Source: Kipferlia bialata (taxonomy: Eukaryota > Fornicata). Taken from it: 20,858 nucleotides of DNA. The DNA lies in contig BDIP01000350.1 of NCBI GenBank assembly GCA_003568945.1, positions 1-20,858 of the forward strand, written 5' to 3'. Positions 3,701 to 20,858 of this stretch are shown here, piece by piece. The translations under genes were made by a program, and so were the position numbers. Within the stretch, counting starts at the first letter, position 1. Each line of letters starts with the position of its first letter. A model generated the notes under the pieces. That model ran no database searches, was not told where the DNA came from, and saw only the letters and a list, made by a program, of their open reading frames with translations.

Positions 3701-5198
3701 ATATAGAGAGGGAGAATAGAGAAGAGAGAGGAACAGAGGCAGAAGGAAAGACAGGGATATATCATATATTATATATGTCAGGGTGCGAATTGCACTGATG
3801 GTGGGGATAGAAATTATACACAAATTATACAGAGACGTGTACATATGTATATATACCATATATAGAGAGAGTGAGAAAGAGAAAGAGAGGGATAGGGTTA
3901 TTTAACAGGGTGCGCAGTGCACTAGAGGTGCGTAAATAGCGCTGTACATAGAGAGAGAGAGAGAGAGAGTACTAACTAATTGTGTACTATTCACTCTACT
4001 ACACCACGTACCTGCATACTGCTGAGTATATATACATAATGTATATGTATATATGTATACACAATATGTATCTATTGAGTGACATTGTGTACAATCCACT
4101 ACCGACTACTAATTAGTACCTGCATACTGCTCAGGTGGGGGAGAGCCTTGGTGAGTGCTGAATCACCCTTGGCGCCTATCTCGTTATGATCCAGGTAGAG
4201 CTGAATAATGAGACAGTCAGTGAAAGCTAACTATTACTTGTATTACACATAGAAGATGCACTCCGATGTTCAGAATATGATGATCGCAGCATCAAGATAA
4301 GTGCACCAAAACATTGGCCAATGGATGGCACTTTGCTGCGGGGGTACACACAGCTAAACTTACCGTTTTGAGAGCTGGCAGCCTGGCAAGTGTCTGTGAG
4401 AGAGCAACAGCCCCAGAGTCTCCAATCTTGTTATCTGAGAGACACAGCTGTAGTTAGAGCTCTGTCCATTCAATATACATGTCATTCCTGACATGCGAGT
4501 CGTTTAGGAATACTATTTGACGTACCGTCTCTAGAGAGGCCAGATTGGATAGAGCCTCTGCAAGATAGGCAGCATCACAGTCGGTCATCGCAGTGCTTCC
4601 CAGGTTCAGCTGATGTTAGTATATATGCACTTCAATATTCTATACTATACTGTAATACTATATTACACCATACTCTGTATTGACTCAACGACATACAGAG
4701 AACGATGAGAATGCATCAAGGAGGAATGAAAGGCAGTTCCCTTACTCAATAGAACCACTTGTGTCTGAAGGCGCTTCGCAATATCGCACAACGCAATACA
4801 AGCAATAGTATGATGCTTGTATTGTGACGGTCATACTCATCAAGTGAGTGCATGAATATGTCGTACTAAGGATACGGCAAGGTATGGAACGAAACCTACC
4901 TCTCTTAGACTGGTAACCATCCCAATCGCGTTGAACAGATACTCCTTATTCCACGGATCAAATCGACTTCCATCCAATGATAGCTGTGATGAGTTTCTAC
5001 CCGATAAGACAAAAGAAATACAGTGAAGATTGTAGCAATGTAGACAATTAGGTGTAGGGAAAAAAATCGAAAAATAGAGAAAAAAGCATGAGTGGCATAT
5101 GACTCTCAACTCACCCTACGGAGGGTGGCCAGGTTTGCGAGGGCCTGCATAAGGTACTGGGTATCTTCTCTACCCATCTCGGCATCTCTACAGTTCAG
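1..5198 (-). CDS. Leucine-rich-repeat protein with C-terminal coiled coil (partial, 19 exons)
   Basis: Exons in transcription order: 5198-5115, 4983-4900, 4609-4526, 4447-4364, 4200-4120, 3320-3240, 3119-3039, 2863-2780, 2651-2568, 2422-2339, 2257-2174, 2091-2005, 1931-1848, 1737-1657, 1587-1504, 1361-1278, 1202-1119, 886-806 and 705-1. All internal exons are 81, 84 or 87 bp, start and end in phase 0, and are bounded by GT..AG. Sixteen each encode one ribonuclease-inhibitor-type LRR (for example LCLSDNKIGDSGAVALSQ, LRLDDNNIGAEGQKAL); two encode a different GWxxW module. The last exon (235 codons, open to the window edge) is a charged helix. LRRs of this kind normally form a curved protein-binding surface, so a scaffold or recognition role is inferred; no catalytic domain is visible. 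The 5' end is unresolved: no start codon can be tied to the first sure exon, and the 3' end lies outside the window. Confidence 0.85.
1657..1737 (-). other. GWxxW module exon 2 of the LRR gene
   Basis: This 27-codon phase-0 exon starts GWEPWEQQSPESVVKPVKEL. It is the paralogue of the exon at 3240-3320 and sits exactly eight exons further along the gene. The neighbouring LRR exons also match their counterparts eight exons away, so the module was probably copied as part of a block. Confidence 0.75.
3240..3320 (-). other. GWxxW module exon 1 of the LRR gene
   Basis: This 27-codon phase-0 exon starts GWPAWKQKSHQAIVKAVK and is flanked by acceptor CGGCTGGCAG and donor GTACGTG. It does not fit the LxLxxN LRR pattern. 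It shares G-W-x-x-W, Ser at position 9, and V-K-x-V-K with the exon at 1657-1737, and both have the same acceptor context, GGCTGGCAG. It may be a capping or spacer element within the LRR array; I do not recognise the module. Confidence 0.75.
3321..4119 (-). repeat. Enlarged intron with LRR-exon relics
   Basis: This intron of about 800 bp, between two LRR exons, is far longer than its neighbours. A motif CAGGGTGGTCAGTGCACT recurs near 3336, 3433, 3538, and in weaker form near 3779 and 3905. Read on the minus strand it gives S/A-L-T-T-L, the usual end of an LRR exon (compare NLATLR at the end of exon 5115-5198). A second relic near 4007-4023 repeats the 3' end plus donor of the next exon (TACCTGCATACTGCT, also at 4117-4131). 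The rest is A/T- and GA-rich simple sequence. Confidence 0.6.
4759..4824 (-). pseudogene. Decayed LRR exon interrupted by an inverted repeat
   Basis: On the minus strand 4815-4759 reads as the second half of an LRR (IALCDIAKRLQTQ) and ends at a plausible donor, GTGGTT. The first half is missing: an in-frame TGA lies upstream and no acceptor follows it closely. The break coincides with a perfect 11-bp inverted repeat, CAATACAAGCA (4794-4804) and TGCTTGTATTG (4814-4824), with a 9-base loop. Position and spacing fit a former LRR exon between 4900-4983 and 4526-4609. Confidence 0.45.
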
Positions 5199-5650
5199 CT
5201 ACGGTAAGAACAGACACACACACACACGTATATATACATATATATATGAGTGTTTATTTATATATGTATATATGTAGGATGCACCACACAGTATTCATAT
5301 ATAAATTTCATATACATTCATACTGATACCGCAACGATTACAACATATATCAACAGAGAGACTACATATAGAAACTGTTCCCAATGAAGAATCCTGTCAT
5401 TTAGTCGCGAGAACATTGTATAATAATTCACTGATCACATTTTGTTATATATTCACACACATGTGGGTATGTATCTATGTATATACAAATTTACTAGTAT
5501 TAGTTACAGTATACACACACACATATATATATTTACAATTGTCGGCCGAAAGTGCCTCTATCGCTCCGAACAACACAGAGTACTTCTCAATTCAATAATA
5601 ATAGTGATAATAATGTGTCAATGGATATATATATATATATATACATTTAC

Positions 5651-5771
5651 CTCTATCCCTCCGTTGTCTAGGCACTCTCTGATATACATCCGCCTTGTCT
5701 GCTATCTCAGGATATGATGGCTTAGAGCCTTCTCCCCATTCACATGGTGGTTCCGGGTAGACAAGCTCTTC
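5651..5771 (-). other. Doubtful upstream exon of the LRR gene
   Basis: The segment is bounded on the minus strand by acceptor TTGACTTCCAG and donor GTAAATG. In one frame it is open for 40 codons (EELVYPEPPCEWGEGSKPS...), is not LRR-like and ends in phase 1, which does not match the phase-0 start of exon 5115-5198. In the second frame it reads STRNHHVNGEKALSHHILR, a good LRR match, but then hits a TAG. Either it is an N-terminal exon in frame 1, or a decaying LRR exon in frame 2. The LRR fit favours decay. Confidence 0.35.
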
Positions 5772-5938
5772 CTGGAAGTCAAAACCAATACACGAATGCA
5801 TAAAGGTATTATTGTATGTATATATATATGTGTGTATATATATAGAGAGGGAGACACTCTCTCTCAGAGAGAGTTCCTGGAAGTCAAATCCAATACAAGA
5901 ATGTATAGAGGTACTATTGTATTTATGTATATAGACAT

Positions 5939-5982
<44 letters not shown>

Positions 5983-6020
5983 GGAGAGAGAGAGAGAAAG
6001 AGAGACATACTCTCCCTGGA
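5771..6020 (-). repeat. Tandem copies of an exon acceptor region
   Basis: CCTGGAAGTCAAAACCAATA at 5771 recurs with few changes at 5876 (period 105 bp) together with the following stretch (CGAATGCATAAAGGTATTATTGTA versus its near match). A shorter trace, CCCTGGAACC, lies at 6014. Each begins at the acceptor side of the doubtful exon 5651-5771, so the 3' splice site and the intron end were duplicated away from the exon. GA and TA microsatellites fill the rest of each unit. Confidence 0.6.
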
Positions 6021-6861
6021 ACCTACCGACCAGGTTCTGAGGGAGATGGGAGAAGAATAGTAACATGGTACATATGTAAATAGTTATATATAAAAATAGT
6101 TATACTAGTATACATAGATGTACACAAAGTACTATTATATATATATATATACATACCAATGGCATGACGGAGTGTGTGGCTTACTGACACACACTCTCAA
6201 TGTGTGTGCCTTTCTGTCTGTCTCTGTCTGTCTCTCTCTTTTCCTAATTGTACAAGGGTCTGTTCCAGGTTGGAATGTTGGGTTAACTAGTGGAACTGGC
6301 GGTCAGAACTATGCTATGTGGAAATAGAAACATGTCAAGTAGTTTGGAAGGTGGAGTAGTATTGGGGCGGTGAGGCAAAGCTGAATTAACCATATATACA
6401 AAAAGAGAAGTACATAGAGAGAGAGGGATAGTCGTAATGAGGGCTGTGAGTCAGAGCTGTAATGTTCAAATTCAGTTCTTTAGTTGGAACACAAGTGAAT
6501 GGAGAGAGAGGGAATTCCGAGAGCTAATCTGAGTATATATATAACAACGGAGAGAGAGACAGAGAGAGAGAGAGTAGTCTGGTGGTAGGGATGGGGGAGA
6601 GAGTGAGGGGATTGGGGGAAAGAGAGAGAAATAGAACGGAGAGGATGAGACAGAGACTGAGAGACTGGAGAAGAGTGAGAGAGTGTGGAGGGGGGAGGGG
6701 GGAACACATACTCATGGCATGTATATACTGTTCAAAGTGCACTATAACCACCCCGTGTTACCACAATGAGTGGAATACACAATCAGTATTGCCATATATA
6801 CATATATTCGATTCCAGTTCTCACTCTTATGCCGTATAAGACTTATACGTGTGACAAATAT

Positions 6862-6909
6862 CCCCCCCCCCCCCCCCCCCATTTCTCACCCCCCCCCCCC
6901 CCCCCCCCC
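6862..6909. repeat. Two poly-C tracts
   Basis: There are 19 consecutive C at 6862-6880 and 21 at 6889-6909, separated by ATTTCTCA. Such paired homopolymers can form i-motif/G-quadruplex structures and are error-prone in sequencing, so their lengths should not be trusted. Confidence 0.9.
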
Positions 6910-7053
6910 TCTCCCACCAACATTATGATACTTATTGTCCAGTTAGCTCTCCTTTCTGCGCTCTAGCGGTGTCCCCAGAATTCACCAGTCCCCCCCACCC
7001 CCCTTCCTCCCTCTCTTCTATACCCTCATGCCTGGCCCTGCATGATATTGTCA

Positions 7054-7086
<33 letters not shown>

Positions 7087-7170
7087 TTGTATATATATAT
7101 ATTTGTATATACTTATATATACTTATATATATGTGTGTGTGTGTGTAAAATGTAGCACGCTGAGCCTGAG

Positions 7171-10100
7171 CTGCCACCATAATCTTCACGTAAGTACACT
7201 GAATACCTTCTATATGTACTTACACTAACCCCCAGAATCACTGACCTGCACCTGACAGTATGTATATATATATATATTTATATATACTATAGCACAATAC
7301 CATCTTTCTATGTGTATATACTAACCCCCAGAATCACTGACCTGCACCTCACAGGATGTGGTCTGTTGAGGAAGGAGATCATGGGGGAGATTAGGTATGT
7401 AGTAAAGGTAGTTTATAGTGATAGTGCAGCTAATGCTTCCATATCTCTCTCTCAAGATATCTCTCTCTCTCTCCCCCCCCCCATCTTACTTTCCCCTCTC
7501 AGTCATAATAATAATATCGAATAGTATTGTATATGATTTGTAATTAACCTCAGGTGGTTGGTTCAGAACTATGCACCTGACCTTGTCGTCAACACAGGTA
7601 GGAAGAGATACCCATATATAGTGTATGGAAATGGGCAGCCTATTGCAATACAACGTAATAGTATATATTTGTGTTTTGCATATCATCCCTGACCTGGTCG
7701 TCAACACAGCTAGGAATGGATATATATATATATATATATATATAGTGTCGATATATATACATACAGGTATAGATATATATCTCCCAATGGTATCATTGAA
7801 TGGTAGTCTATAATGGTGTGCTGTTGTATATTGCTATATATACTGATATCGTCCCTGACCCGGTGGTCAACACAGGTAGAGTTGTGGTATATACCTCACC
7901 AAGTGATATGTACTATTAGGCAAAGTACCAGTGTTTTCGACATCATCCCGCTCTCTATAACAATGCTTGAACCTAGCTACGAATGCTTACACACAGGTGA
8001 CATTACTTCATGCACGGCCAAGGTGACCCAACAGGTGAGAGGGAGACATCATATTAGAAAGATAGATATGTATATATGAATACATTTGACTTGACTTAGA
8101 AACACCACTATATTGAGAATGACCGGGGGGAAGAGGGGAATAGGGAGAGTGGGAACAGCTGGTGCCATATTCTAGCAGGCGCCTACGCGCATATATTCAT
8201 CTACCATGAGTAATCGTCTCTGATGGTAAATCCGCTGTAATGATTGTATACTCTTCACCCCGCCAGCATGTCGATGTGTGTTTGGGTATGTCACCAAGAG
8301 AATGGGTATGCTCGTGACCTATCTATGTCTAAGACAGCTGGTGTCCCTATGTATGATAGTGTTCACATACATACCTCCTTGTCTTACCCTCCAGGTCCAT
8401 GTTGATGTGTGTGAGTATGTCACCCAGACACTCGGGGTACCCTACCTAGTCACATTCGGTAAGTGATGCATATGTATATATACAATAGTAAATATATATG
8501 CGTGGTAAGTATTTCGCTAACACAACTGAACTTCAATAGTGTAGTCTGACTAGTCACAGTCAATGCCTTAAAGTGTGGTGCATAGACAATAGGCAACCAC
8601 GCCGATGACCTGTGGTTCATGTCAGATGAGGAGATATATATTGATGATGAGTATCAAGGATATATATATATATATATATATTCCCATATATACCTTAAAT
8701 TATATATACCTACTCTAGGTAACCATGCCGATGACCTGTGGTTCATGTCGGATGAGGAGATAGAGGAGGCATATCCTGAGGGGTACAGGTAAATGTATAT
8801 GAGTGCACTTGTGTGTATGACACCGTATACTCACTACTCTTTGGATATAATGGGGCATATCCAGAGGGGTACAGGTAATGATATATGTAGAAGTATTATA
8901 TAGGTAGAAGTATATATATATATAGAGGGGGCATATCCAGAGGGGTACAGGTAAGTATTAATATAAGTATTATATAGGTAGAAGTATGTGCTTGGTACAC
9001 AATATACTATCTTAGGAAGACAGAGGGGGCATATCTAGAGGGGTCCAGGTAGTGTATATTTGTATTATATTAGTTAAAGTATGTGTTTGGTACACTATAT
9101 ATATAGAGGCGGCATATCCAGAGGGTACAGATAGTGTATGTTTGTATTATATAGGTAGAAGTATGTGTTTGGTACACTGTATGTATAGAGGGGGCATATT
9201 CAGAGGGGTACAGGTGATACTGATACTGGTATTACACCTGTCAGGTCTGATCCTTGCAGAAGGTAGGACATTAGTGTTGGAATAAGGTACTTGCTCATAT
9301 AGGGGAATAATGCAGAGTTTATATATTCTCTCATACCAGACGCACTCTGATCCAGGACATTGTGGACAGGTGTATATCACTTATGTGACCCGCTATGAAT
9401 ATATTCCAGAGTGGTATATAGTAGTATCCGGGGGTTTTGCGTGCTCTCATACCAGACACACTCTGATCCAGGACATCGTGGACAGGTGTGGAGGGAAAGG
9501 GTCACTCTTTATGGGCTATGTAGGTATCAGGACTATATATGGTGGCTATATCGACTTTCACAATGGTGTGTAGTAGATACACCTAACGTGCACTATACAA
9601 GAATATTAGTATAGATGCTCATTCTTACAACAGGCGAAGCAGAGAGTAGCGAGGGCCACAGTGCTGATAATGTGGTTCCCATTTACTCCTCCGAATCAGC
9701 CTCTGACCCTGCTGGGTTGATATGGGTACTAGATACACACTCAGGGGGGTTAGAGGAATCCCAGGTATTTGTATCTCTCTTGCGACTGTATACATACTAC
9801 AATAGTATACAGTGTGAGCTTATACGTTCTGTATGCGTATATGGTATACTATCTTGTATGGGTACTGGATAGAGGAGGCACAGGTGTGTATATACAGATA
9901 GTGCATATATATAGTATAATAGTTGGAACTATATAGTGTGCTGCCTTGATATGGGTAACGTCCACACACTCAGGGTGGATACATGGGAAATATTTAAGAT
10001 AGTCAGGTATGTATATATATATGTATATGTTATACATATGTACAATATCTGGTATGAGTGCTGGACACACACTCAGAGGGAATAGAAGAGTCCCAGGTGT

Positions 10101-13100
10101 ATATACATATATATACCTTTTGACTAACCCCACAGGTGGGTCAGAGACACAGTGTCATCACATATATAGTAGGAGACTATCTGGTGTTACCGTGCTTGTA
10201 TAGCACATGGTCTATGCTGACCCTCTAGGTCGAGTGGGTCAGAGACACTGTGTCAGCAGAGTACACTGACAATGAGACTGGGGAGATACCCCCATCCCTC
10301 GTGTATTGGCACAGTACGTATGTGTATATTAGTAGTACATATACCTTGCAGTCTTTGGATCATGTCTATCAAACATTGATTCTACCTCCCTCCTAATAGG
10401 TCTCTGCACATACCATCCTATGACTGACATTATGTCATCTAACCTCCAGTCTCCACAGCGGAGTGGGACCCAAGTCCATAGACAGACATACCATATTCAT
10501 NNNNNNNNNNNNNNNNNNNNNNNNNNNNNNNNNNNNNNNGACATACCATATTCATACTATATATATTCCATATGTGATGTACCATATACAAACTGGATAC
10601 TATATATTTCTTCTAACCTCCAGTCTCCACAGCGGAGTGGGACCCAAGTACTGAGATAGACATACTGTACACATATTTTAGTAATTCTGTATACATGTTA
10701 AATACAATATATATAGTAAGTCTATAATATTGTATTGTCTACCCTTCAACCCCAGTCTCGATATACCATATACAAACTAAGCTATATACATGTCTTCTAA
10801 GCCCCAGTCTCCACAGCGGAGTGGGACCCAACTACTGAGATAGACATACTGTACACCTATTATAGTAATTCTGTATACATGTTATATACAATATATATAG
10901 TAAGTATATATTCTATGTATGTCTTCTGACCTCCAGTCTCCACTGCGGAGTGGGACCCAAGTACAGAACATGTCACAGGAGTGTATGGAGACACAATCAG
11001 AGATGGTACGCAGTCCCAGCTAATAGTCACTACACATATCACACAGATAAGCATATACCCATATTACCATATTCACTACCATTTGTCTCCAACGTCAGAG
11101 GTCTCTGCGAGACAGAGGTACCCAGGTGTCCTCTCAGACGTACTGGACGCAATAGGTATGTATGGATACTATAGTCATACTCACCTGATATGGAATCTTG
11201 CGGGTTGAGAGTTTGTACGTCCGTGTCCCCCTAAGTGTCAAAGACTACGTATATGATTTGTATGCTTCAGTTTGCTATTTGTAGTTGTACAAGATAGAGT
11301 ATATACTAAATACATACTATTCTACGAAAAGGTGCTCACCATATGCAATACATGGATTGTGTATGTGCTTCTTGCAGCTATTTGCATTTCTGCAATAGTA
11401 TATACTTAGTATATTGACTTCAATGAGTGCTCACCATATGTAATGTGTGGCTTGTGTCTGTGGGCCATCTGAAGTATAGAGAGAGAGGTATATTCATTAT
11501 GGACAATTCAATAGGCGCTCATTCCAGGCAATGCGTGGCTTGTGTCTGTGGGCCATGATCACTTGAACAACCACGCCTTGGAGACTTCAGGTGTGTGCGC
11601 ACATATATGTAGATATTGAATGAATGTCATTAGTGGTGTGTTCGTTTGCCAGCTCAGACCCCAGCTGCTGTGCGAATGAGTATTATATACGTACTCTGTG
11701 TAAATACTACACATCTACCTAATGTGTAGAGCATAATAATTCTGACCCCAGCTGCTGTCCAGCCATCCACAGCAGACAGACCAGTGACACTGATGTGAGT
11801 ATATACACAAATTTATCAGACAGACCAGTGACACTGATGTGAGTATATGTATAGTACTAGATACACACATATAAATATATATAGTAATATGTATTTATGT
11901 ACCATCCATCCACCGCAGACAGACCAGTGACACTAATGTAAGTATATGTATAGTACTAGATACACACACACATATATATATATAGCAATATGTATTTATG
12001 TACCATCCATCCACAGCAGACAGACCAGTGACACTGATGTGAGTATGCTCTGGTATATATATGTGTGTGAATAGTAAAAATCCATGTGTTAATGTAGGTA
12101 CATATACTTTGAATGAATGTATATATACATCAGCCATTTCCAGCAGACAGGCCAGTGACATTAATGTTAGTATATATATAGAACTAAATGTATATATATA
12201 TGTGTATTGTGTCTTAGTACCATCCATCACCAGTATAGTTCAATTATTGGATTATTCATTTCGTGCATACATATGAATCAGCCCTCGACAGCAGACAGGC
12301 CAGTGACATTAATGTAAGTGTATATATCTGTATTCTCTCTCACACACATATATATGCATTGTTAGTGCTATACCTAACATCAGGTATGGCATGAAGACTT
12401 GCATCTCCGCCTATGGCATGCTGGACATGGATGCATACACAGGGGGGAGGGTGTTCAACCTCAGCATAGATGAAGGTACCACGACGATACATTGTAGTAT
12501 ATATCTTGCGGCTATATTTGATAGACGCATAATCTAGTATTGGTTGTGTGTTCAAGCTCAGCCATTGTATCGGTGTATGTGATAGATCTCCCTGGGACAG
12601 TCTCACCCCCAGGTGATCTATCAGTAGAGACCTTTCTGGCCAGGCTGGCACCAAGGGATAACAGGAACATTAGGTGACATGTTGCTGTTTCCATTGTACA
12701 TACTATCTTACACATTATCGACTATATAGCTGCCTTCATTGTTTGATGATGATCACAGGGTATACGGGTATATATGGTGTTCACGTATACTATCTGATGC
12801 CAGTTCAGAGGACTACCGCATTGCCCTCTACCCTGGCATGCCCTTTGTAGAGATGGAACAGACCACTACTGGGGTGTACAGAAGGGCCATATCATACATG
12901 CCAAGTACGTTGGTGTTGAAATAACTATATTACTCTCCTCTCTCTTCAACGTACAATTGTCATTGTGTTGTATATTCATGTGTCTTGTGACTACTAATCC
13001 CAGTCCTTGTCCGGCTCCACTTCTTCTGTCTTGATACATTTGTATATATATACATATACTAATACAGAGACTCTATATGTATATACCCTTGTATTGTGTA

Positions 13101-13222
13101 TATACAGAGCATACCTCACCCCAGTGCTTGTCCTCCTCCCCTTCAGCTGTCTCTTCTGCTGTCTCATGTGCTGTGTGTGTAGAAGGGCATATCCACGCAG
13201 GAAGGGCAGTTCACTATTGTGA
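7171..13222 (+). CDS. Membrane-anchored calcineurin-like metallophosphoesterase (PAP/Dcr2 type), 17 exons
   Basis: Exons: 7171(?)-7189, 7332-7394, 7554-7597, 7997-8034, 8395-8458, 8719-8788, 9456-9523, 9634-9764, 10229-10313, 10937-11005, 11099-11155, 11528-11590, 11752-11794, 12384-12475, 12613-12673, 12759-12904 and 13125-13222 (TGA). Phases agree at every junction, giving about 400 residues. All metal-binding motifs occur in order: D-x-H in TITDLHLT (about residue 10), GD in DLVVNTGDIT (43), GNH in YLVTFGNH (77), His in LVYWHISTAEWD (194) and GHDH in LVSVGHDHLNNH (245), then YGMKTCISAYG typical of the Dcr2/PAP29-like group. The usual acidic residue after GNH is Ala (GNHADD). The end is a hydrophobic stretch (LVLLPFSCLFCCLMCCVC) with a basic tail, RRAYPRRK, so a membrane-anchored phosphatase is likely. 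The start codon and any signal peptide are unresolved. Introns contain decayed copies of exon ends. Confidence 0.82.
7236..7257 (+). repeat. Copy of the metallophosphoesterase motif-I exon start
   Basis: ACTAACCCCCAG plus AATCACTGACCTGCACCT at 7224-7253 duplicates the acceptor and first 18 bases of the exon at 7332, followed by divergent TA repeats. The functional copy is taken to be 7332 because only it continues in frame to the next donor. Confidence 0.75.
7688..7876 (+). repeat. Two decayed copies of the GD-motif exon end
   Basis: CCTGACCTGGTCGTCAACACAG (7688-7709) and CCCTGACCCGGTGGTCAACACAGGT (from 7853) repeat the 3' end of exon 7554-7597 (CCTGACCTTGTCGTCAACACAG). The 7853 copy keeps an AG|GT donor; in the 7688 copy the GT has become CT. 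Both lie inside the following intron. Because the second copy keeps its donor, which one is used cannot be decided from sequence alone. Confidence 0.75.
8267..8300 (+). repeat. Decayed copy of the exon at 8395
   Basis: CATGTCGATGTGTGT behind acceptor CTTCACCCCGCCAG repeats the start of exon 8395-8458 (CATGTTGATGTGTGTG). It then diverges and reaches a TGA in frame, so it is read as a relic. Confidence 0.6.
8593..8640 (+). repeat. Decayed copy of the GNH exon
   Basis: The stretch GCAACCACGCCGATGACCTG and what follows, to GATGAGGAGATA, matches exon 8719-8788 at nearly every base for about 45 bases. It then runs into TA repeats and has no donor. It keeps an AG just before it (AATAG), so the 5' part of the exon with its acceptor was copied upstream of the functional exon. 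Confidence 0.75.
8852..9213 (+). repeat. Minisatellite of five exon-end plus donor copies
   Basis: The 3' end of exon 8719-8788 with its donor (GGCATATCC..GAGGGGTACAGGTAA) is repeated at 8852-8874, 8927-8950, 9025-9048, 9106-9130 and 9187-9213, with spacing of about 75-98 bp. Each unit also carries a shared intron piece (GGTAGAAGTATGTG, TTGGTACAC). Four of the five keep CAGGT; the unit at 9106 has CAGAT. The original donor at 8789 is assumed to be used. Confidence 0.8.
9340..9369 (+). repeat. Second copy of the exon at 9456
   Basis: Acceptor CTCTCATACCAG and 30 bases encoding HTLIQDIVDR occur here and again at 9456-9485 with three base differences. Both copies keep a usable acceptor. Only the second continues in frame to a donor that fits the next exon (9523, phase 1). 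Confidence 0.7.
9857..10096 (+). repeat. Three decayed copies of the WVLDTHSGG exon end
   Basis: The tail of exon 9634-9764 (TGGGTACTAGATACACACTC..TCCCAG) recurs at 9857-9883 (TATGGGTACTGGATAGAGGA), 9945-9979 (TTGATATGGGTAACGTCC) and 10051-10096 (GGACACACACTCAGAGG..GTCCCAG). The first and last retain CAG|GTGT donors. Confidence 0.7.
10136..10169 (+). repeat. Decayed copy of the WVRDTVS exon
   Basis: GTGGGTCAGAGACACAGTGTCA after acceptor GACTAACCCCACAG repeats the start of exon 10229-10313 (AGTGGGTCAGAGACACTGTGTCA). It lacks the first codons and soon stops in frame. Confidence 0.7.
10450..10834 (+). repeat. Three tandem copies of the STAEWDPS acceptor/exon start
   Basis: CTCCAG|TCTCCACAGCGGAGTG occurs at 10450, 10624 and 10808 before the functional copy at 10937. 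The 10624 and 10808 units share a further 90 or so bases of intron (GAGATAGACATACTGTACAC .. CAATATATATAGTAAGT). A fragment, CCCCAGTCTCGATA, lies near 10751. Only the 10937 copy continues to a donor (11006) in the right phase. Confidence 0.8.
10501..10539. other. Assembly gap (39 N) with matching flanks
   Basis: The 39 undetermined bases are flanked on both sides by the same 16-mer, GACATACCATATTCAT (10485-10500 and 10540-10555). Either the contigs overlap and the gap has no real length, or a tandem repeat unit is missing. Confidence 0.95.
11345..11468 (+). repeat. Two decayed copies of the GHDH exon start
   Basis: The beginning of exon 11528-11590 (GCAATGCGTGGCTTGTGTCTGTGGGCCAT) is repeated at 11440-11468 (TAATGTGTGGCTTGTGTCTG) and more weakly at 11345-11369 (GCAATACATGGATTGTGTAT). 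In both the acceptor AG is lost (CATATG in place of TTCCAG). Confidence 0.7.
11809..12317 (+). repeat. Five tandem copies of an exon end with donor
   Basis: The tail of exon 11752-11794 (CAGACAGACCAGTGACACTGAT|GTGAGT) is repeated around 11819, 11919, 12017, 12145 and 12294. Later copies read CAGACAGGCCAGTGACATTAAT|GT. Several also carry the upstream CCATCCACAGCAGAC. Each keeps AT|GT at the donor position. The choice of donor does not change the reading frame as long as AT is the last dinucleotide. Confidence 0.8.
13004..13031 (+). repeat. Decayed copy of the membrane-anchor exon (upstream)
   Basis: CTACTAATCCCAG followed by TCCTTGTCCGGCTCCACTTC repeats acceptor and start of the terminal exon (TGCTTGTCCTCCTCCCCTTC at 13125). 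It soon meets a stop. Confidence 0.65.
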
Positions 13223-13871
13223 CTAGTACATTTTGATGTAGTATAGGAGCCTGCATATTAATATATATGTCCTCTCCTGTCTCATGTGTTGTGTGTGCAG
13301 AAGGGCCTATCCACGCAGGAGAGACGACTTGTCATGCTCAGTATAGTCAGTACACTTTGGTATAGTCCAAGAGGCTATTCATGTATAGTCTTCATATGTC
13401 TCCTTCTCCGAGTTCATGTGATCGTTCAAACGTGTATTGTAACAGTAAATGTAGTGGTATACGGTACATGAGCCTTGATATATTACTAATGGCGTCCTAC
13501 TTCTGATCTCAAGTTGGTTCAAACTGAAACCTCATCTCTATTTATATTACTACTGTAATAGAGCAAATATTCCTGACTATCTTTCATGACTATGTGTCTT
13601 GCGGAGGAGACGGTTCTGCTTATGACGGTGACGGTGGGGTGTATGGTGGAGAGAAGGAGGAGGAGGAGGAGAGGGAGGAGGATACTGGCGACTCAGATAC
13701 CATGCCGGACCCTAGAGGCGTGGACAGGAGGGGCAGAGCTGATATAAGGGTGTAGAGAGAGAGAGAGACAGGACACTGGAGGCGTGGACAGGAGGGGCAG
13801 AGCTGCCAGAAGAAGGGGAGAGAGAGTACGTAGAGGTATGAGAGAGGACTACTACTCTATGGGAGGTGTAC
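13223..13871. other. Convergent spacer with GA-rich repeat
   Basis: After the anchor-exon copy the spacer holds a GA-rich block (13648-13683) and a duplicated segment CGTGGACAGGAGGGGCAGAG at about 13718 and 13782. In one plus-strand frame 13615-13755 reads as an acidic Gly/Glu/Asp stretch ending in TAG, with no start or clear splice link. It may be 3' untranslated sequence of either convergent gene. Confidence 0.5.
13268..13349 (+). repeat. Downstream copy of the membrane-anchor exon
   Basis: CTCCTGTCTCATGTGTTGTG and the following bases repeat 13158-13201 and encode LMCCVCRRAYPRRRDDLSCSV before a TAG, instead of the RRAYPRRKGSSLL end of the main exon. It has its own AG (GTGTGCAG). It could be a relic or an alternative 3' end. 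Confidence 0.55.
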
Positions 13872-15084
13872 TTAGTTCGCATTTGAAAGAGAATGCATAG
13901 TACATTCAATAGACAACCCATGTCTCCTTATCCTACCTTTGTCCCACTCGTGAAGCTGTGCCCACACCCTCTGCTCATCTGGGTACACAAGCGCCTCGTT
14001 GAGTGTAAGAAGAGTGGCAACTACATCTGTGGTCTGGTTGACGGTATCTCGTCTAGTCACCAGTCTGCTCAGACACCTCCTATCACCTATGGAGGTGCAA
14101 CCTGTGTTGTCGTTGAACGTGGTGTCCTTTGACAGATGGATCCAGTCTCCACTGATGGTGTCATAGGCATGTATTCCCTTCTGCCCGAAGAGCACTATCA
14201 GCCGGCCAGCAGTCTGTGTATAAGAATGACATTCAAATACATAATATGTGCCCAATACAAGTACACTGAATGTAAATGCATATTCAACATACACATACCT
14301 GTGCCATACTGAAGTCTCCAAGACCCTGAGGCAGTAATCTATGCTCTGTCCAGCCGTGCTTGGGTGTGTAGGAGTGATGGGTCCTGTCTCCAGAGTGGAA
14401 CACATGTACCACACCATCCACTGCAGTGAAAGCATTGTATGCTGGGGACTTTCTCTTGTCTATGGTGATTGTGTACAGCTCTGCGTCAAAGAGGTAGGTG
14501 TTGCACTTATCATTGAACCAGACGGTGTGGTCTCTGAGAGCACATGCAGATGGGAAGTGGAGTGGGTACAGCCTCTTGGGCTCGCTCGTTGGAAGTGTGA
14601 CGTGAACTCCGTACCCATCAATGAAGGAGGTGGTTGTCGACAAGGAGACCCTACTCTCAACGCCGGCCTCGTAGCATCTGATGACACACATGGGGTAACC
14701 CCCGTCAACATCATCAAAGGTCTCTCTGACGTCTTGATGCCCTATCACCACCCCACCAACCTCTACCAGGCAGTCACACTCCGTCAGGGGGGCAGAGCTA
14801 GGCTCCCACACTGACTTCGTGGATAACTGGTACTCTGATCTGTCAATGGATACATCTGAGACATTGTCCTGGGGAAGAGCGAACTGTAGGTAACAGTCGT
14901 GGGTGAAGGTCCGAGCAGCAGCGAGGCATGTATCAGAGTCCATGAGATGCACAATGTTGGACCGTAACAGGCCTCTCTCATTGAGGTGGGGTAGATCAAG
15001 ACTAGTGAAGGTGACGGAGTCTACCTCAACGGCACTGCGGTGGTCTGCTCTCGCCTCAGAGTACCCGTAGGGCCTCTTTGCCAT
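13872..15084 (-). CDS. Kelch-like beta-propeller protein, two exons
   Basis: Exon 1 is 15084-14299 and exon 2 is 14213-13872 (TAA). The 85-bp phase-0 intron has donor GTATGT and acceptor CTTATACACAG. The product is about 375 residues, starting MAKRPYGYSEAR. The first true ATG is at 15084; the frame is open a little further upstream but only with GTG. The C-terminal half shows propeller strand patterns: AVDGVVHVFHSG..HHSYTPKHGWTEHRL, then AGRLIVLFGQKGIHAYDTIS-GDWIHL, the hydrophobic-strand, H-x-Y/A-Y-D, G-x-W layout of kelch blades. The segment HAYDTISG resembles HAYDTVSG in the gene at 16009-18322, so the three kelch-like genes here are probably related. No signal peptide or membrane segment is seen. 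The likely role is protein-protein binding; the partner is unknown. The gene is convergent with the phosphoesterase and divergent from the kelch pair. Confidence 0.75.
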
Positions 15085-15246
15085 GTGTGATATCACTCTC
15101 TGATTCGATTACGTGCTGACTGTAGAGGCAACCCTGGGGTCAGATACATTGGTAACATCTCTAACACAATGTGGCTAGATCAATATAGGATAACAAGTAT
15201 GACTCAATGTGGGAAGTTACCAGTGTGTTTGCTCCTTCTGTGATAG

Positions 15247-15269
15247 AGAAGAGGCTCTTCTCAGAAGAG
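15247..15269. repeat. Zigzag inverted repeat Z1
   Basis: AGAAGAG, G, CTCTTCT, C, AGAAGAG: three perfect 7-base arms alternating in orientation with single-base spacers. Confidence 0.9.
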
Positions 15270-15292
15270 CTCTGTGCTAATGCTGCTAGTTG

Positions 15293-15312
15293 CAGTAACT
15301 TACTGGCAGTAA
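15293..15312. repeat. Zigzag inverted repeat Z2
   Basis: CAGTAA, C, TTACTG, G, CAGTAA: perfect 6-base arms. The outer palindrome extends to 12-base arms (15294-15318) with one mismatch. Confidence 0.9.
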
Positions 15313-15434
15313 GCTACTAACCCAAGTGACGCCATCAAGTGTTATCGTTGAGAGTTCAACTGTAGTCAACAGTGGATAGGATCTCGACTGCAGTTCTATC
15401 TGCATGTTCTGAATACTATAGAGTGTAGAACACA

Positions 15435-15641
15435 ATGTGTAATATGCAGCAAGTGCAAAGTAACCGAGCTTACGACGGGGCTATAGGGAGCGGTATCAAG
15501 TTGAGACTATCAACAAAGGATGGGAGAGTAAGATGGACTCTAACTGTGGGGGGACAGAACCGCAAACGGATAGTATATATGAACTGCCCCATCTCGGTAT
15601 GGGCCACACCAGATACGGTGTACTACGCAGAGATTCAGTGA
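15435..15641 (+). CDS. Small hypothetical protein (68 aa), uncertain
   Basis: An ATG-to-TGA frame of 68 codons starts MCNMQQVQSNRAYDGAIG. The middle alternates polar and hydrophobic residues (LRLSTKDGRVRWTLTVGG, then IVYMNCPISVWATPDTVYYA), which looks like a run of beta-strands rather than chance sequence. I do not recognise a family. It could be an independent small gene, a remnant of a larger beta-rich protein, or a 5' exon of something downstream, although it has its own stop and no donor joins it to the gene at 16009. No copy is seen upstream of the tandem paralogue at 19035. Confidence 0.35.
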   Translation: MCNMQQVQSNRAYDGAIGSGIKLRLSTKDGRVRWTLTVGGQNRKRIVYMNCPISVWATPDTVYYAEIQ

Positions 15642-16008
15642 GAGTGTGGGGAGGACGGATACGAGTAGAAACTAATTCAGGATTATGTCACCGGATTCTA
15701 GGGAAACATCAAATCTTTCACGTGCTTGTGGGCCACAAGTTGTGGCGTACATACTCCAAACACATGCAATACTAGAGGGGCGCTGTCTCGTGTGGGATTC
15801 CGATTAATGTCCCTGTTGGGACTTCAGGTGTGAATAGTAATAGTGTCATTTTGAGGGTATCTTCGAATCTATGATTGTATACATATTAGATCTTCTACTG
15901 TATCAGTGCCACCCACTATACTGTAGAGTATACAGCAGAGGTTAAACAGTGATAGAGACTGGTGATGCCTGGAGTCTTTTCTCTACCTACCATACTTCAA
16001 ACCACTGA
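15642..16008 (+). other. Spacer before the first tandem kelch gene
   Basis: No supportable gene. It contains the zigzag repeat 15726-15745 and a short hairpin, TATACT-GTAG-AGTATA, near 15918-15933. Promoter and 5' leader of the gene at 16009 are expected here but not recognised. Confidence 0.5.
15726..15745. repeat. Zigzag inverted repeat Z3
   Basis: TTGTGG, G, CCACAA, G, TTGTGG: perfect 6-base arms. Confidence 0.9.
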
Positions 16009-18322
16009 ATGGGACCATTCCTAAGCCGTTCCACTACTGGACGTGCCCAAAGGCTCTCCATCCCCACTGAGGCTCATACTCTGTCAGGCCTCGCTGCCTC
16101 TCTGTGGGATGAGGGGTTCCCTTCACTCACTGCACTCTTAGGTATTACTGTTGAGAAGTGAGTCAAACATATACTTATGTTACCGCTTGAGTCATGGTCC
16201 ACTATATGGATAGTCTCAGAATCATAGTTTGTATCAGCCAATACCTCTCCTCACTTCTAGACGCCATGGCTGCAGAGTCCTGTGGAGAGTGGAAGAAGGG
16301 GAGGGTACCCCCTTGGATGGAAGGCAAGACCCATGGTGTCATCAAGTGCAGCTGTGACAGGGTTTCTCTACAGTACGAGAGAGACACGTCAGGATTCAGA
16401 CTTGGTGAATTCAGACACATGGGTGATGGCAGGTATGGACCGTATCAAACATTCATACAGCACTTACTATGTCCACATTCCTACTACAACTTTGCTCCAA
16501 ATTGGCCTCCAATATGGTTACTAATAGTAACTTACAATATATACATGAGTATAACAGCAGTGTCCTATCGAGTCATGCTGACTTCTGTGAGCACATGCCC
16601 AGAGACATGATTGCCACCGAGCAGTCGGAGAAGTCCTCTAACATCCCTCTCTACCTGTTGCATCAGGAGTTTTCGAGTATCAACAGTCTTCTCGAGAGAA
16701 TGGATCAGGTATATGTGCAATCATACAGACAGGATGGCACTGCGAAGCGATAGTCGACTCGACACTATATGAGTCACTCATATATACAAGTAGAAACACT
16801 TATAGAAGGATAGTTGTGATATATTCCTCGCTCATTTATCTTAAGGTCACCGGTGGCACGTGGGATGTCCTGCAAGCTCCTATCCGCAACGTTGGAGGTG
16901 AGTAAAGGACATATACATGAAAGAGAAGTGGCAACTTCTGTCAAAGATTGTTGGTATGCATAGAGGAGAATGACTGTCGTTGTGTCTCACTCTCAGTTGG
17001 GGTAATTGAGTGTGCGGGGTGTGGAAAGTGTAGAGTGTTGTACACTGTCATGGACGTCACTAGACTCAGACGGTTCCACCAAAGTCTCTTCTGTCCTACA
17101 AAGCGCTTTGACTGTCATGATCCAGCGTGTCCTGCTAATAGCAGTGCTAGAACCCATGGTATAGGTGAGTAACTAAGTTACTCACTGAGTAACTGTAGCA
17201 CTGGGATCCAAACTAGTTACCAGGAAGTACAGTCTCTCCCTGTTACACTCCTATGGAGACTCTAACACAGACGTTTACTGTCACCGTGTAATTCCATCAC
17301 GTCGCCCTAAGTACACGGAGACTCTATTGTGTGTACTGGGACCGTCGGAAGCTCTCTTTTGTGAGAACCACTCTGATGAGAAGAAAAGGCGCCTCTGTGT
17401 GTTGACAATACCAACGACTGGAAGCAGGGAAAGTAGGTCACACTACACAAGAGAGTTCATAAGACTGCCCCCTGGTATGGGTTTCCCTTATTTAACGTGT
17501 GCAGAGAGGCGTAATGATGGAATTCAGATGGGAGCGGAAGTGATTCTTACTCTAAAGTCGGAGAAGTACTGGGTGTATGCACTCTCTCTGGATTCGTATA
17601 CCTGGAGGTGTCTTCCTAGCTCTCCTGAAACACAAGGGTCACTGGAAGAGACACCAGTGTGGCATTGGGAGATTGAACTGGAACCAGTGTTTGCACTGGA
17701 TGGATGCTTACACCTGGTAGGAAGTGGATCCTATTCCGGTCAGCGGAGTGATGTACATACTGTACATTGGAGGCTAGATCTTGAGACCAATGAGTGGTGT
17801 AACGTGCCTGTTCCTTTCCCACAGAGTGACTCTTTCCACCTCTCTGGGGGCAGCACTCAGACTGAGTGGTGTGTCGTTGGATGTACTGTATATGCATTGC
17901 ATGGTCAGATGCTTCTTGGTACGTACACAGATCAGTCTGGGTGGCAGATAGTAGTTACCCCAAGGAGGTCGGAATACCCACCCCCCAATGATTGGTGCCA
18001 CTTCTACTCTGGAGCCGTAGCAGTTGGCCGGTATATTGTACGGTTACGAAACCAGAGAGACATCTACACAGTGATACCTGCGGTGTACCATGCCTACGAT
18101 ACAGTGTCTGGTGAGACGGAGGTATGGTTGGGTGACAGACGTCTATCGGGTGTTCTGACAAAGGGGAACGCTGTTTATCCAATTTGGGTAACTGCGGATT
18201 TGGCGGGATACAGATGTCTCTTCTTCCTCCAGATTGGAGAGAAACTGAGGTGGAAGGATGAGCTTTCAGTGAATCTGGTAAGACAGGAGTTCGGAAGGTC
18301 AGACCCGGAGGGGTACATGTGA
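16009..18322 (+). CDS. Cys-rich plus kelch-like propeller protein, paralogue 1 (6 exons)
   Basis: Exons: 16009-16141, 16261-16432, 16561-16708, 16846-16897, 16964-17164 and 17217-18322 (TGA). Phases are 1, 2, 0, 1, 1, giving about 600 residues. Start is MGPFLSRSTTGRAQRLSIP. The N-terminal third has two Cys clusters: KCSCDR (exon 2) and ECAGCGKC followed by FCP, DCH and PACP (exon 5), which may bind zinc. The last exon (368 codons) is a kelch-like propeller: CVLTIPTTGSRESRSHYTRE, SLDSYTWRCLPSSP, RLDLETNEWCNVPV, VYHAYDTVSGETEVW. The D-x-Y/T-x-x-W pattern recurs once per blade. The predicted role is a binding scaffold, probably cytosolic since no signal peptide or membrane segment is seen. The gene at 19035 repeats the exon plan exactly. 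The acceptor of the last exon (ACTAG, 17216) was chosen because it alone restores the frame. Confidence 0.8.
16518..16537. repeat. Imperfect zigzag inverted repeat
   Basis: TTACTA, A, TAGTAA, C, TTACAA: one mismatch in the third arm. It lies in intron 2 of the first tandem kelch gene, just upstream of the acceptor. Confidence 0.7.
16766..16784. repeat. Single-base-centre palindrome
   Basis: TATATGAGT, C, ACTCATATA: perfect 9-base arms in intron 3 of the first tandem kelch gene; no third arm. A smaller one, GTCGA, C, TCGAC, sits just upstream at 16753-16763. Confidence 0.9.
17166..17194. repeat. Zigzag inverted repeat Z4 at a 5' splice site
   Basis: TGAGTAACT, A, AGTTACTCA, C, TGAGTAACT: perfect 9-base arms, the longest of the set. 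The first arm overlaps the GTGAGT donor of intron 5 of the first tandem kelch gene (donor begins at 17165). Confidence 0.92.
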
Positions 18323-18417
18323 ATATGAAGAGCAGTCAGGGGATAGGAATAGATCATACAGAGGGCCGAGAGGTCCAGAGACAGAAATATGCGAGAATTG
18401 TGATACTGTGGAGAGGG

Positions 18418-18437
18418 TCAGAGGCTCTGACTCAGAG
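18418..18437. repeat. Zigzag inverted repeat Z5
   Basis: TCAGAG, G, CTCTGA, C, TCAGAG: perfect 6-base arms. Both overlapping palindromes extend to 7-base arms. Confidence 0.9.
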
Positions 18438-18649
18438 CTACATCCACTGGGCATATTATGATTCTTGTAACTTGTGACTACTTATACATTCTAAACAGTG
18501 GCATTGTCAACCTCAATGCCAGTAGCAGTGTGTCATAGACTGTCTCTATTAGAGTGTGTATTAGGATGATATTATCCGGATCAACACAGTAGACCTTCAA
18601 AGTCACTCACTGTTGTGAGTCACAAGAGGATGAGATGGTTTCACACGAA

Positions 18650-18672
18650 TCAGACAGTGTCTGATTCAGACA
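18650..18672. repeat. Zigzag inverted repeat Z6
   Basis: TCAGACA, G, TGTCTGA, T, TCAGACA: perfect 7-base arms. The first palindrome extends to 10-base arms (18647-18667), the second to 9 (18656-18674). Confidence 0.92.
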
Positions 18673-18749
18673 CTCAGTTAACCTCAGTGCAAATGCTGAA
18701 TTCTCCACTCTTCCTCTCAAAGCAGATCATATCTCTGGGGGAACTAGGG

Positions 18750-18772
18750 ATACTGAGTCAGTATCATACTGA
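18750..18772. repeat. Zigzag inverted repeat Z7
   Basis: ATACTGA, G, TCAGTAT, C, ATACTGA: perfect 7-base arms; both palindromes extend to 8-base arms (18749-18765 and 18757-18773). Confidence 0.92.
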
Positions 18773-18791
18773 CACATCCCTCGCAACAGCC

Positions 18792-18851
18792 CAGGCGCAG
18801 AGACTTCCCAATAAGAAGTTCTGAAGGCCCATGCCCTGTCAGGTAACCTCC
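18792..18851 (+). pseudogene. Relic of exon 1 of the kelch pair
   Basis: AGGCGCAGAGACTTCCCAAT and the run GAAGGCCCATGCCCTGTCAG align with exon 1 of the downstream gene (GTGCTCAGAGACTGTCC .. GAGGCCCATACCCTGTCAG). The frame is broken by an in-frame TGA and small length changes. It lies about 200 bp upstream of the intact exon, so it is either the remains of a third tandem gene or a partial duplication of exon 1. Confidence 0.65.
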
Positions 18852-19034
18852 GCAGTGTAAATATTGGCCCATATATGAGGGTATCTCTCTTGTGTGGAAG
18901 ATACTCTTTACAGGTCTGAAGAAACCAAGGATTTCTGTAGAGTCTACGGTGTTGGCCCTATCCCCACTACAGCACATACACCACTGTCAATGCTAGTGTC
19001 GTCTTCTTTCCATATATTCAGCAGGTGCTGTACT

Positions 19035-20858
19035 ATGGGAACCGCATTCAGCCACAACAAGACAGGGCGTGCTCAGAGACTGTCCATCCCGCCTGAGGCC
19101 CATACCCTGTCAGGCCTACCTGCCTCCCTGTGGGATGAGAGGTTCCCTACACTCAACGACCTCACAGGTATATTGTGTGTATTCACTCTACTTGAGTTCT
19201 CTTCCGCTTAGTATGTGTTCACCGTTCACCGATAACCGTTCAGGTACCATGTGCGCAGAGTCCTGCCGGGACTGGGTGGAGACTAGGATCTTGCACTTAC
19301 ATCATGACCCGACTGTACCTGTTGTCACCATCCTTGCAATTAAGTGTGGCTACTGCAGAGTCCGCTTAGTCGAGTGTGTGTTGACTCGTGATGGGTACAC
19401 ACTGGGTCAGTTCTGTGACGTGTTTGGCAGAAGGTATATCGGCAATACTGTTGGCAACTACATTGTGATAGATGTTGGGATCTGACCAGAACGACTGTGA
19501 TATTCTTCCATCAGGGTTGGCGCTGTTGCCCACTCCTCGTACTGTCCACATGGCACAAGAGACACATACATACAAAGGAGCTCCCAAGAGTCCTCTGGTA
19601 TCCCTGTCTCCCTGTGGGATGAGGAGTTTGGAAGTGTAAACAGTATGCTAGAGAGACTGGATGAGGTAAACATAGTACTGAGAATTGGTCTTTATGAATT
19701 GGGAGACATATCCCATAATAGAAACTGCATATATGTACGATTGGTAACCACCAGGTGGTATAGACTCTATACTTAGGATGTCTTAAGGGTGTCCAGCGCT
19801 GGGACTGTACCAGGATACAGTAGACAACATACTACTTCTGTGAGTTGAATCCTCACACGTCTCACTCAAGGTAACAGGTGGCACATGGGACATAGGTCAC
19901 CGACAGACTCTGCCTTTACCACCCACAGGCGGTATGGACACTATAGTATCTGACATCCATTGTGGAAGTTCGAAGGATGCGACGTCTATTTTGTACTGGT
20001 AACCAATGGTCAATATCCCTAACTATATCTTTAGTGCTCAATGACTCCCAGCCGGAACTGTTGAGTGCCAGACGTGTTGCCGCTGTTCTGTTGGATACAC
20101 CAACAGGGGCATCGTACAGCTGAGAGGCTTCAGGAAGAAGTATACTATCGGTCCTCCCGAGGGTGATCTCCTCAATTATCACATTCCAACCTGCCAAAGT
20201 CGGCTACGAATTAGAACCGGTACGGTCAGTGACTAACATCGAGAGTTGTAACTTGGTTCAAATATTTAAATGTTGGGGTGCCTTGAATGACTCTAGGCAA
20301 CCAGTACCCGGATGTGTCTCTCCACCGTCTCTTCTCCCCAAGGGTGTCTGACCTTTCGGTACAATGTGAGGAGCTCCTAACTGTTCTCGGCCCTGGACAA
20401 GCCCTATTGAGAGTCAGCAGTTCAAGTGACGGACACGCGGACGCCACCAGTCTCTGTCTCATCACCATGCCAACTACTGGGGATAGAGAGACCAGGTCCC
20501 ATCGCACTAGGGAGTACATCCAACTACCACCCGGGATGGTTATGCCCCTTCTTGTCACTCATTATGTCCACACATGCGTGCATGTAGGCAGTAGGCTTGT
20601 CATATCCCTATATCCTGTTGAGAGAACTGACTCATGGTCCCCAGACTGGGAGAACTACTCACTGTCCTTGGACACTTATGAATGGAAGCGTCTTCCCAGG
20701 CAGCCAACTCTCTTCCAATCTCCCCCAGAAGGGACCTGGGATCAAACAGACACTGTAGAGTTGTATCCGGAGATGAAAGTAGCGTTTGTGATGGGGGAAG
20801 AGGTCCATTATCTGGGCTTGCGTAGTGTATTCTTTGACTATGGCGATTCTAGGTTAAG
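19035..20858 (+). CDS. Cys-rich plus kelch-like propeller protein, paralogue 2 (partial)
   Basis: Exons: 19035-19167, 19244-19433, 19515-19665, 19871-19931, 20052-20219 and 20297-20858 (runs off the window). Phases are 1, 2, 0, 1, 1 as in paralogue 1; exon 1 is 133 bp in both. Start is MGTAFSHNKTGRAQRLSIP, then HTLSGLPASLWDE (paralogue 1 has HTLSGLAASLWDE). Exon 2 has IKCGYCRV, exon 5 VECQTCCRC, matching the Cys clusters of paralogue 1. The last exon shares LLTVLGPGQALL, MPTTGDRETRSHRTREYIQL, LPPGM and SLDTYEWKRLP with it. MGxxxS at the N-terminus fits the N-myristoylation consensus. Acceptor CTCCCAG at 20051 was chosen over TTTAG at 20033, which leads to a stop. The C-terminal half lies outside the window. 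Confidence 0.8.
19758..19772. repeat. Single-base-centre palindrome in intron 3 of kelch paralogue 2
   Basis: GTATAGA, C, TCTATAC, immediately preceded by ACCACC, A, GGTGGT (19747-19759). Same geometry as the zigzags but only two arms each. Confidence 0.85.

What the first reader, a model, noticed from the sequence alone, without database searches (positions are those of the whole stretch)
15247..18772. Zigzag inverted repeats: arm, 1 base, inverted arm, 1 base, arm, at seven sites with unrelated sequences
Seven perfect sites (15247, 15293, 15726, 17166, 18418, 18650, 18750) and one imperfect (16518) share one geometry: three 6-9 base arms alternating in orientation, separated by exactly one base. 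The arm sequence differs at nearly every site, so this is neither a dispersed repeat family nor one binding motif. For 6-base arms the chance per position is 4^-12, about 6 in 100 million, so several in 3.6 kb cannot be random. All lie in introns or spacers. In four of seven the two spacer bases are complementary. Possible causes: repeated template switching of a polymerase on its own nascent strand, or selection for a hairpin that can pair in two alternative ways (arm 2 with arm 1 or with arm 3).
Basis: seen in the sequence. Interest (0 to 1): 0.88.

Follow-up and report, generated by a model that had tools for sequence, protein, structure and literature searches.

The report
Scars left by departed jumping genes
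The zigzag repeats are most likely the repair scars left where a cut-and-paste transposon with 8-9 base target duplications jumped out repeatedly, leaving the target sequence forward, reversed and forward again; the mechanism is known from laboratory transposons, but a 3.5 kb stretch holding about a dozen such natural scars is unusual.

Summary
All seven perfect zigzags are present, and inverted repeats in this part of the window have exactly one-base centres (17 with arms of at least 7, against 0.55 in shuffles; none with 0- or 2-base centres). The sites obey a stricter rule: T minus its last base, then the reverse complement of T, then T minus its first base, with T mostly 8 or 9 bp. This is the product expected when a transposon flanked by a target site duplication T is cut out by a hAT/Mutator-type transposase. 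Such an enzyme leaves hairpins offset by one base on the flanking DNA; if they open with 3' overhangs, the two overhangs are complementary because both derive from T. Scanning with this model finds 12 scars in 15246-18773, including incomplete ones, against 0.3 expected by chance. All 12 lie in introns or spacers (P = 0.0003). T starts with G and has T second more often than chance, like hobo/Hermes targets. No transposon or transposase is in the window and the genome is not held, so empty sites could not be checked. The mechanism is known; dense, complete natural scars appear to be a new variant.

The parts
15246..15270 (.). complete scar GAGAAGAG-gctcttctc-AGAAGAGC, T=GAGAAGAGC (9 bp), intergenic
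15291..15313 (.). one-sided scar TGCAGTAA-cttactg-GCAGTAAG, T=TGCAGTAAG (9 bp), 7 bases of the inverted copy; the listed site that breaks the simple rule for spacer 2, explained as p=7, q=0
15725..15746 (.). complete scar CTTGTGG-gccacaag-TTGTGGC, T=CTTGTGGC (8 bp), intergenic
16209..16231 (.). probable incomplete scar GATAGTCT-cagaatc-ATAGTTTG, T=GATAGTCTG (9 bp), one mismatch, intron 1 of gene A
   Evidence: weaker; 0.3 hits of this score expected by chance in the region
16494..16513 (.). incomplete scar GCTCCAA-attggc-CTCCAAT, T=GCTCCAAT (8 bp): inverted copy lacks two inner bases, intron 2 of gene A
16517..16538 (.). complete scar GTTACTA-atagtaac-TTACAAT, T=GTTACTAT (8 bp), one substitution, intron 2 of gene A
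17165..17195 (.). complete scar GTGAGTAACT-aagttactcac-TGAGTAACTG, T of 11 bp, one mismatch; starts on the first base of intron 5 of gene A and copies its 5' splice site
18417..18438 (.). complete scar GTCAGAG-gctctgac-TCAGAGC, T=GTCAGAGC (8 bp), intergenic
18535..18558 (.). probable incomplete scar ATAGACTGT-ctctat-TAGAGTGTG, T of 10 bp, one mismatch, intergenic
   Evidence: weaker
18649..18673 (.). complete scar ATCAGACA-gtgtctgat-TCAGACAC, T=ATCAGACAC (9 bp), intergenic
18749..18773 (.). complete scar GATACTGA-gtcagtatc-ATACTGAC, T=GATACTGAC (9 bp), intergenic
16009..18322 (+). gene A, six exons and five introns, continuous reading frame, weak Kelch-motif similarity; host of four of the scars
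6825..6849 (.). candidate scar outside the cluster: TCTTATGC-cgtataaga-CTTATACG, T=TCTTATACG (9 bp), one mismatch

Best explanation
Each zigzag is an excision footprint of a DNA transposon that made target site duplications of 8-9 bp and used the flank-hairpin chemistry of hAT and Mutator-like elements. Insertion duplicates the target T, giving T-element-T. On excision the transposase nicks one base inside each flank and seals each flank as a hairpin, so that the base at the tip is the complement of the outermost T base. A host nuclease opens the hairpins away from the tip, leaving 3' overhangs that carry the reverse complement of T on one side and T on the other. Because both overhangs come from the duplicated T, they are complementary, anneal and are sealed, leaving T[1..n-1], reverse complement of T, T[2..n]. 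If the hairpins are opened nearer their tips, only part of the inverted copy remains. Shown here: the sequence rule, the one-base offset, the length of 8-9, the incomplete forms, the non-coding location and the target-like bias of T. Inferred: the transposon itself, the hairpins, their opening and annealing. Clustering by local hopping of one or a few elements is a further guess.
For: (1) The rule T[1..n-1].rc(T).T[2..n], with complete or partial inverted copy and at most one mismatch, fits every listed site. (2) With an offset of 1 the model finds 12 sites in 7 kb (0.3 expected at the same score); offsets 0 and 2 find none, and offset 3 finds shadows of the same sites. (3) T is 8 bp at five sites, 9 bp at five, 10 and 11 at one each. 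The Mutator-like Muta1 makes 8 or 9 bp duplications, MULEs in general 8-11, the hAT element Hermes 8. [quoted passage not shown] (5) Incomplete scars keep the direct repeat but lose the middle (16494) or one end (15291) of the inverted copy, as independent hairpin opening predicts. (6) T starts with G at 14/24 ends (P=0.0002) and has T second at 13/24 (P=0.004), like hobo GTNCGNAC and Hermes NTNNNNAN. (7) 12 of 12 lie outside exons, P=0.0003.
Against: No transposon with 8-10 bp duplications and terminal repeats and no transposase was found in the window; not every small reading frame was scanned. No empty-site allele was available: the genome is not held, and only exons of the paralogous genes A and B align. 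In the Candida footprints short insertions dominate, whereas complete inverted copies dominate here; this needs wide hairpin opening plus annealing, and short footprints would be undetectable by this scan. The mix of 8 and 9 bp (and one 11) does not fit a strict 8-bp hAT element. The clustering in 3.5 kb is unexplained.
Confidence: 0.78

Rival explanations
1. Double template switching during replication or break repair: the polymerase jumps to the complementary strand, copies back 8-9 bases and jumps home, creating the inverted copy and the direct repeat in one event.
For: Short-range template switching is documented (papers listed) and can make inverted copies of nearby sequence.
Against: It does not predict that both jumps are displaced by exactly one base at every site, a copied length of 8-9 bp, incomplete forms with the middle missing (16494), or a G-T bias at the ends of T.
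Confidence: 0.12
2. Footprints of the same kind made by a domesticated, regulated hairpin-forming transposase (programmed excision at this gene cluster) rather than by a free-living transposon.
For: Same sequence evidence; domesticated hAT enzymes such as Kat1 make flank hairpins; unusual density of 5.6 sites per kb of non-coding DNA.
Against: Mismatches in five of twelve sites suggest inherited scars of different ages, and T varies freely; no recurrent cut signal is seen.
Confidence: 0.05
3. Selected hairpin elements in introns and spacers (RNA or DNA structures that pair in two ways).
For: Perfect self-complementarity; non-coding location.
Against: A one-base loop is sterically unfavourable for a hairpin; three of five sites fold better than shuffles and two do not; the end-base rule and the incomplete scars are unexplained.
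Confidence: 0.03
4. Assembly or sequencing artefact.
For: The window has an assembly gap (39 N).
Against: An artefact would not respect exon borders (P=0.0003), or give 8-9 bp copies with one-base offsets and a target-like bias.
Confidence: 0.02

Closest known systems
Ac/Ds (hAT superfamily) excision footprints in yeast, plants and Candida albicans (PMC5873905 and works cited there)
   Same: Palindromic insertions centred on the complement of the base next to the element; hairpin opening followed by end joining, often with microhomology
   Different: Here the whole inverted copy of T is usually kept, T is 8 or 9 bp, and the scars are natural and dense
Mutator-like elements, e.g. Muta1 (PMC5225508)
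   Same: Target duplications of 8 or 9 bp; MULE transposition described as resembling hAT and V(D)J recombination (title of a paper cited in PMC6446971)
   Different: Muta1 excision in yeast is about 90% precise when target duplications are present and shows little target bias; here scars persist and T is biased
hobo/Hermes target sites (PMC3276498, PMC2803484)
   Same: GT favoured at the start and AC at the end of the duplication
   Different: hobo and Hermes duplications are 8 bp only
P nucleotides of V(D)J coding joints
   Same: Palindromic additions from opened hairpins
   Different: From general knowledge: RAG hairpins have no one-base offset, so palindromes are even-centred, and there is no target duplication
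Short-range template-switch mutations (PMC7954356)
   Same: Inverted copy of nearby sequence in one event
   Different: No fixed copied length or fixed one-base displacement is expected

Membership tests
hAT-type excision footprint | Palindromes centred on one base that is the complement of the base bordering the element, on both sides | tested here: met
   Each spacer rule holds in 7 of 8 listed sites; 15293 is explained as a one-sided form and 17166 as one mismatch
hAT-type excision footprint | Direct repeat (target duplication) of 8 bp around the insertion | tested here: inconclusive
   8 bp at five sites, 9 bp at five, 10 and 11 at one each
hAT-type excision footprint | Target motif nTnnnnAn / GTNCGNAC-like | tested here: met
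   G first 14/24, T second 13/24 against hobo and Hermes motifs; a bias, not a strict motif
hAT-type excision footprint | hAT transposase or terminal repeats in the same genome | not testable with these tools
   Genome not held; none found in the window
Mutator-like element footprint | Target duplication 8-11 bp, mostly 8-9 | tested here: met
Mutator-like element footprint | MULE transposase or terminal repeats in the genome | not testable with these tools
   Genome not held
P-element footprint | Retained bases of the element's terminal repeats between the target duplications (from general knowledge) | tested here: not met
   The inserted bases are accounted for by the inverted copy of T
Template-switch mutation | Variable copied length and variable jump distances | tested here: not met
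   T 8-11 bp, offset always 1

The most novel reading that the evidence does not exclude
Complementary hairpin overhangs derived from the duplicated target anneal as a regular repair route in this organism, so that many excisions leave a complete, self-dating T / inverted T / T scar. The genome would then carry a dense, readable record of transposon departures, independent of any surviving element, possibly made by a new element family with mixed 8/9 bp duplications and a GT...AC preference.
Probability: 0.4. Interest if true: 0.75.

Novelty: new variant of a known kind. Interest (0 to 1): 0.6.

Why it matters
If right, the rule T[1..n-1].rc(T).T[2..n] is a search pattern for transposon excision that needs no knowledge of the transposon. 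It would let one count past excisions, read the duplication length and target preference of vanished elements, date scars by their internal mismatches, and compare how hosts repair hairpin-ended breaks in nature. It also shows how short palindromic insertions can accumulate in introns and spacers, in one case copying a splice donor.

Tried and rejected
Whole genome for a genome-wide scan: not held. Relatives of genes A/B and C in viral and prokaryote genome contigs: none. Pfam: only weak Kelch matches and chance-level hits. Intact element with 8-10 bp duplications and terminal repeats in the window: none convincing; the best hits were weak, simple sequence or lay across the N gap. Rfam and tRNA: none. 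Offsets 0, 2 and 3 and a reversed-not-complemented control of the footprint model: none beyond shadows of the offset-1 sites. Short, typical footprints (direct repeats at 6-13 bases): no excess, but they are statistically too weak to detect. Empty-site comparison with the paralogous gene B: only exon stretches align. Organism: a free-living fornicate such as Kipferlia bialata was considered because of intron density and base composition, but this is only a guess and nothing rests on it. The primary papers on MULE transposition chemistry and Ds repair in yeast were not held.

Full report
Observation. A direct scan reproduces all seven perfect zigzags at the coordinates given. Counting maximal inverted repeats shows what is odd about the region: from 13800 to 20858 there are 17 with arms of at least 7 bases and a centre of exactly one base, none with a centre of 0 or 2, and one each with 3 and 5. 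Dinucleotide shuffles of the same DNA give 0.55 one-base-centred repeats on average and never a zigzag in 300 trials. The first 13.8 kb show no such excess.

The stricter rule. Looking one base beyond the arms, spacer 1 is the complement of the base after arm 3 and spacer 2 the complement of the base before arm 1, each in 7 of the 8 listed sites. So the sites read T without its last base, the full reverse complement of T, and T without its first base, where T has 8 or 9 bases (11 at 17165).

Model. This is the product expected when an element flanked by a target duplication T is removed by a transposase that nicks one base into the flank and seals the flank as a hairpin. Hairpin caps on the flanking DNA are established for hAT enzymes. 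[quoted passage not shown] If both hairpins are opened well away from the tip with 3' overhangs, the left overhang is the reverse complement of T and the right one is T; they pair, and the sealed product is the zigzag. The annealing step is my inference. It explains why complete copies are the commonest detectable class.

Test of the model. Allowing any part of the inverted copy to be kept from either side (p bases from the left, q from the right), a scan of 13800-20858 finds 12 sites, all in 15246-18773, with at most one mismatch. At the same score threshold shuffles give 0.3. Models with an offset of 0 or 2 find nothing. An offset of 3 gives hits that are shadows of the offset-1 sites. New sites include 15493 (complete, one substitution) and 16494 (GCTCCAA-attggc-CTCCAAT, the inverted copy of GCTCCAAT with two inner bases missing). 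The latter is what end joining of two separately opened hairpins would leave, and template switching would need an extra step for it. The listed site that breaks the rule for spacer 2, 15293, is perfect as a one-sided form (TGCAGTAA-cttactg-GCAGTAAG). The sites at 16209 and 18535 are weaker and should be called probable.

Independent support. The T sequences were defined only by the repeat geometry, yet their ends are biased: G at position 1 in 14 of 24 ends (P=0.0002) and T at position 2 in 13 of 24 (P=0.004). That resembles the hobo motif GTNCGNAC and the Hermes consensus NTNNNNAN with many GT...AC sites. A at position 4 is equally biased (13 of 24), which I cannot match to a motif. The lengths, five of 8, five of 9, one of 10 and one of 11, match Mutator-like elements (8 or 9 bp in Muta1; 8-11 bp in MULEs generally) better than the 8 bp of Hermes. 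I therefore do not assign a superfamily.

Context. Gene A (16009-18322) has six exons that join into one open frame; its paralog B starts at 19035 and agrees with the first exon borders. All 12 sites fall in introns or spacers; random placement avoids the exons with P=0.0003. The density is 5.6 per kb of non-coding DNA. The scar at 17165 begins on the first base of intron 5 and copies its splice donor GTGAGT. Five of the twelve have one mismatch, so the scars are probably inherited and not all of one age; since the scan allows only one mismatch, older ones are missed.

Limits. There is no transposon end, terminal repeat pair or transposase in what was scanned of the window, no whole genome and no relative in the searched collections. 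The decisive evidence, an empty or still occupied site in another strain or haplotype, could not be obtained. The clustering of 12 sites in 3.5 kb, with only one candidate (6825) in the first 13.8 kb, is unexplained; local hopping, as known for Ac/Ds, is one possibility from general knowledge. Novelty was judged against an open-access library only: searches for records of such footprints found laboratory footprints but no natural accumulation of complete T / inverted T / T scars.

Verdict. Real, non-random and best explained as excision footprints of a hairpin-forming cut-and-paste transposon, probably repaired by annealing of duplicated-target overhangs. Known chemistry, unusual natural record.

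Noticed in passing
16009-18322 and 19035-20858: Two tandem paralogous genes with matching exon borders; proteins begin MG and share the motif TGRAQRLSIP.EAHTLSGL.ASLWDE.FP; the long last exon of gene A has weak Kelch-motif similarity. No relatives in the searched collections.
   Followed up: partly
16766-16784, 17854-17868, 19758-19772: Three lone palindromes with a one-base centre and no third arm; they may be one-sided scars or chance (0.55 expected). The one at 17854 is inside exon 6 of gene A.
   Followed up: partly
17165-17195: A scar starts exactly on the first base of intron 5 and carries the splice-donor sequence again in inverted and in direct orientation.
   Followed up: partly
10501-10539: Assembly gap of 39 N with the same sequence (CATACCATAT) on both sides, next to a tandem repeat of 184 bp at 10576-10910.
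   Followed up: no
8924-9213 and 11817-12046: Tandem repeats of 82-95 bp and about 101 bp in the microsatellite-rich first part of the window, which differs in composition from the zigzag-bearing part.
   Followed up: no
1-13800 against 15246-18773: Scars are almost absent from the first 13.8 kb (one candidate at 6825) although much of it looks non-coding.
   Followed up: partly
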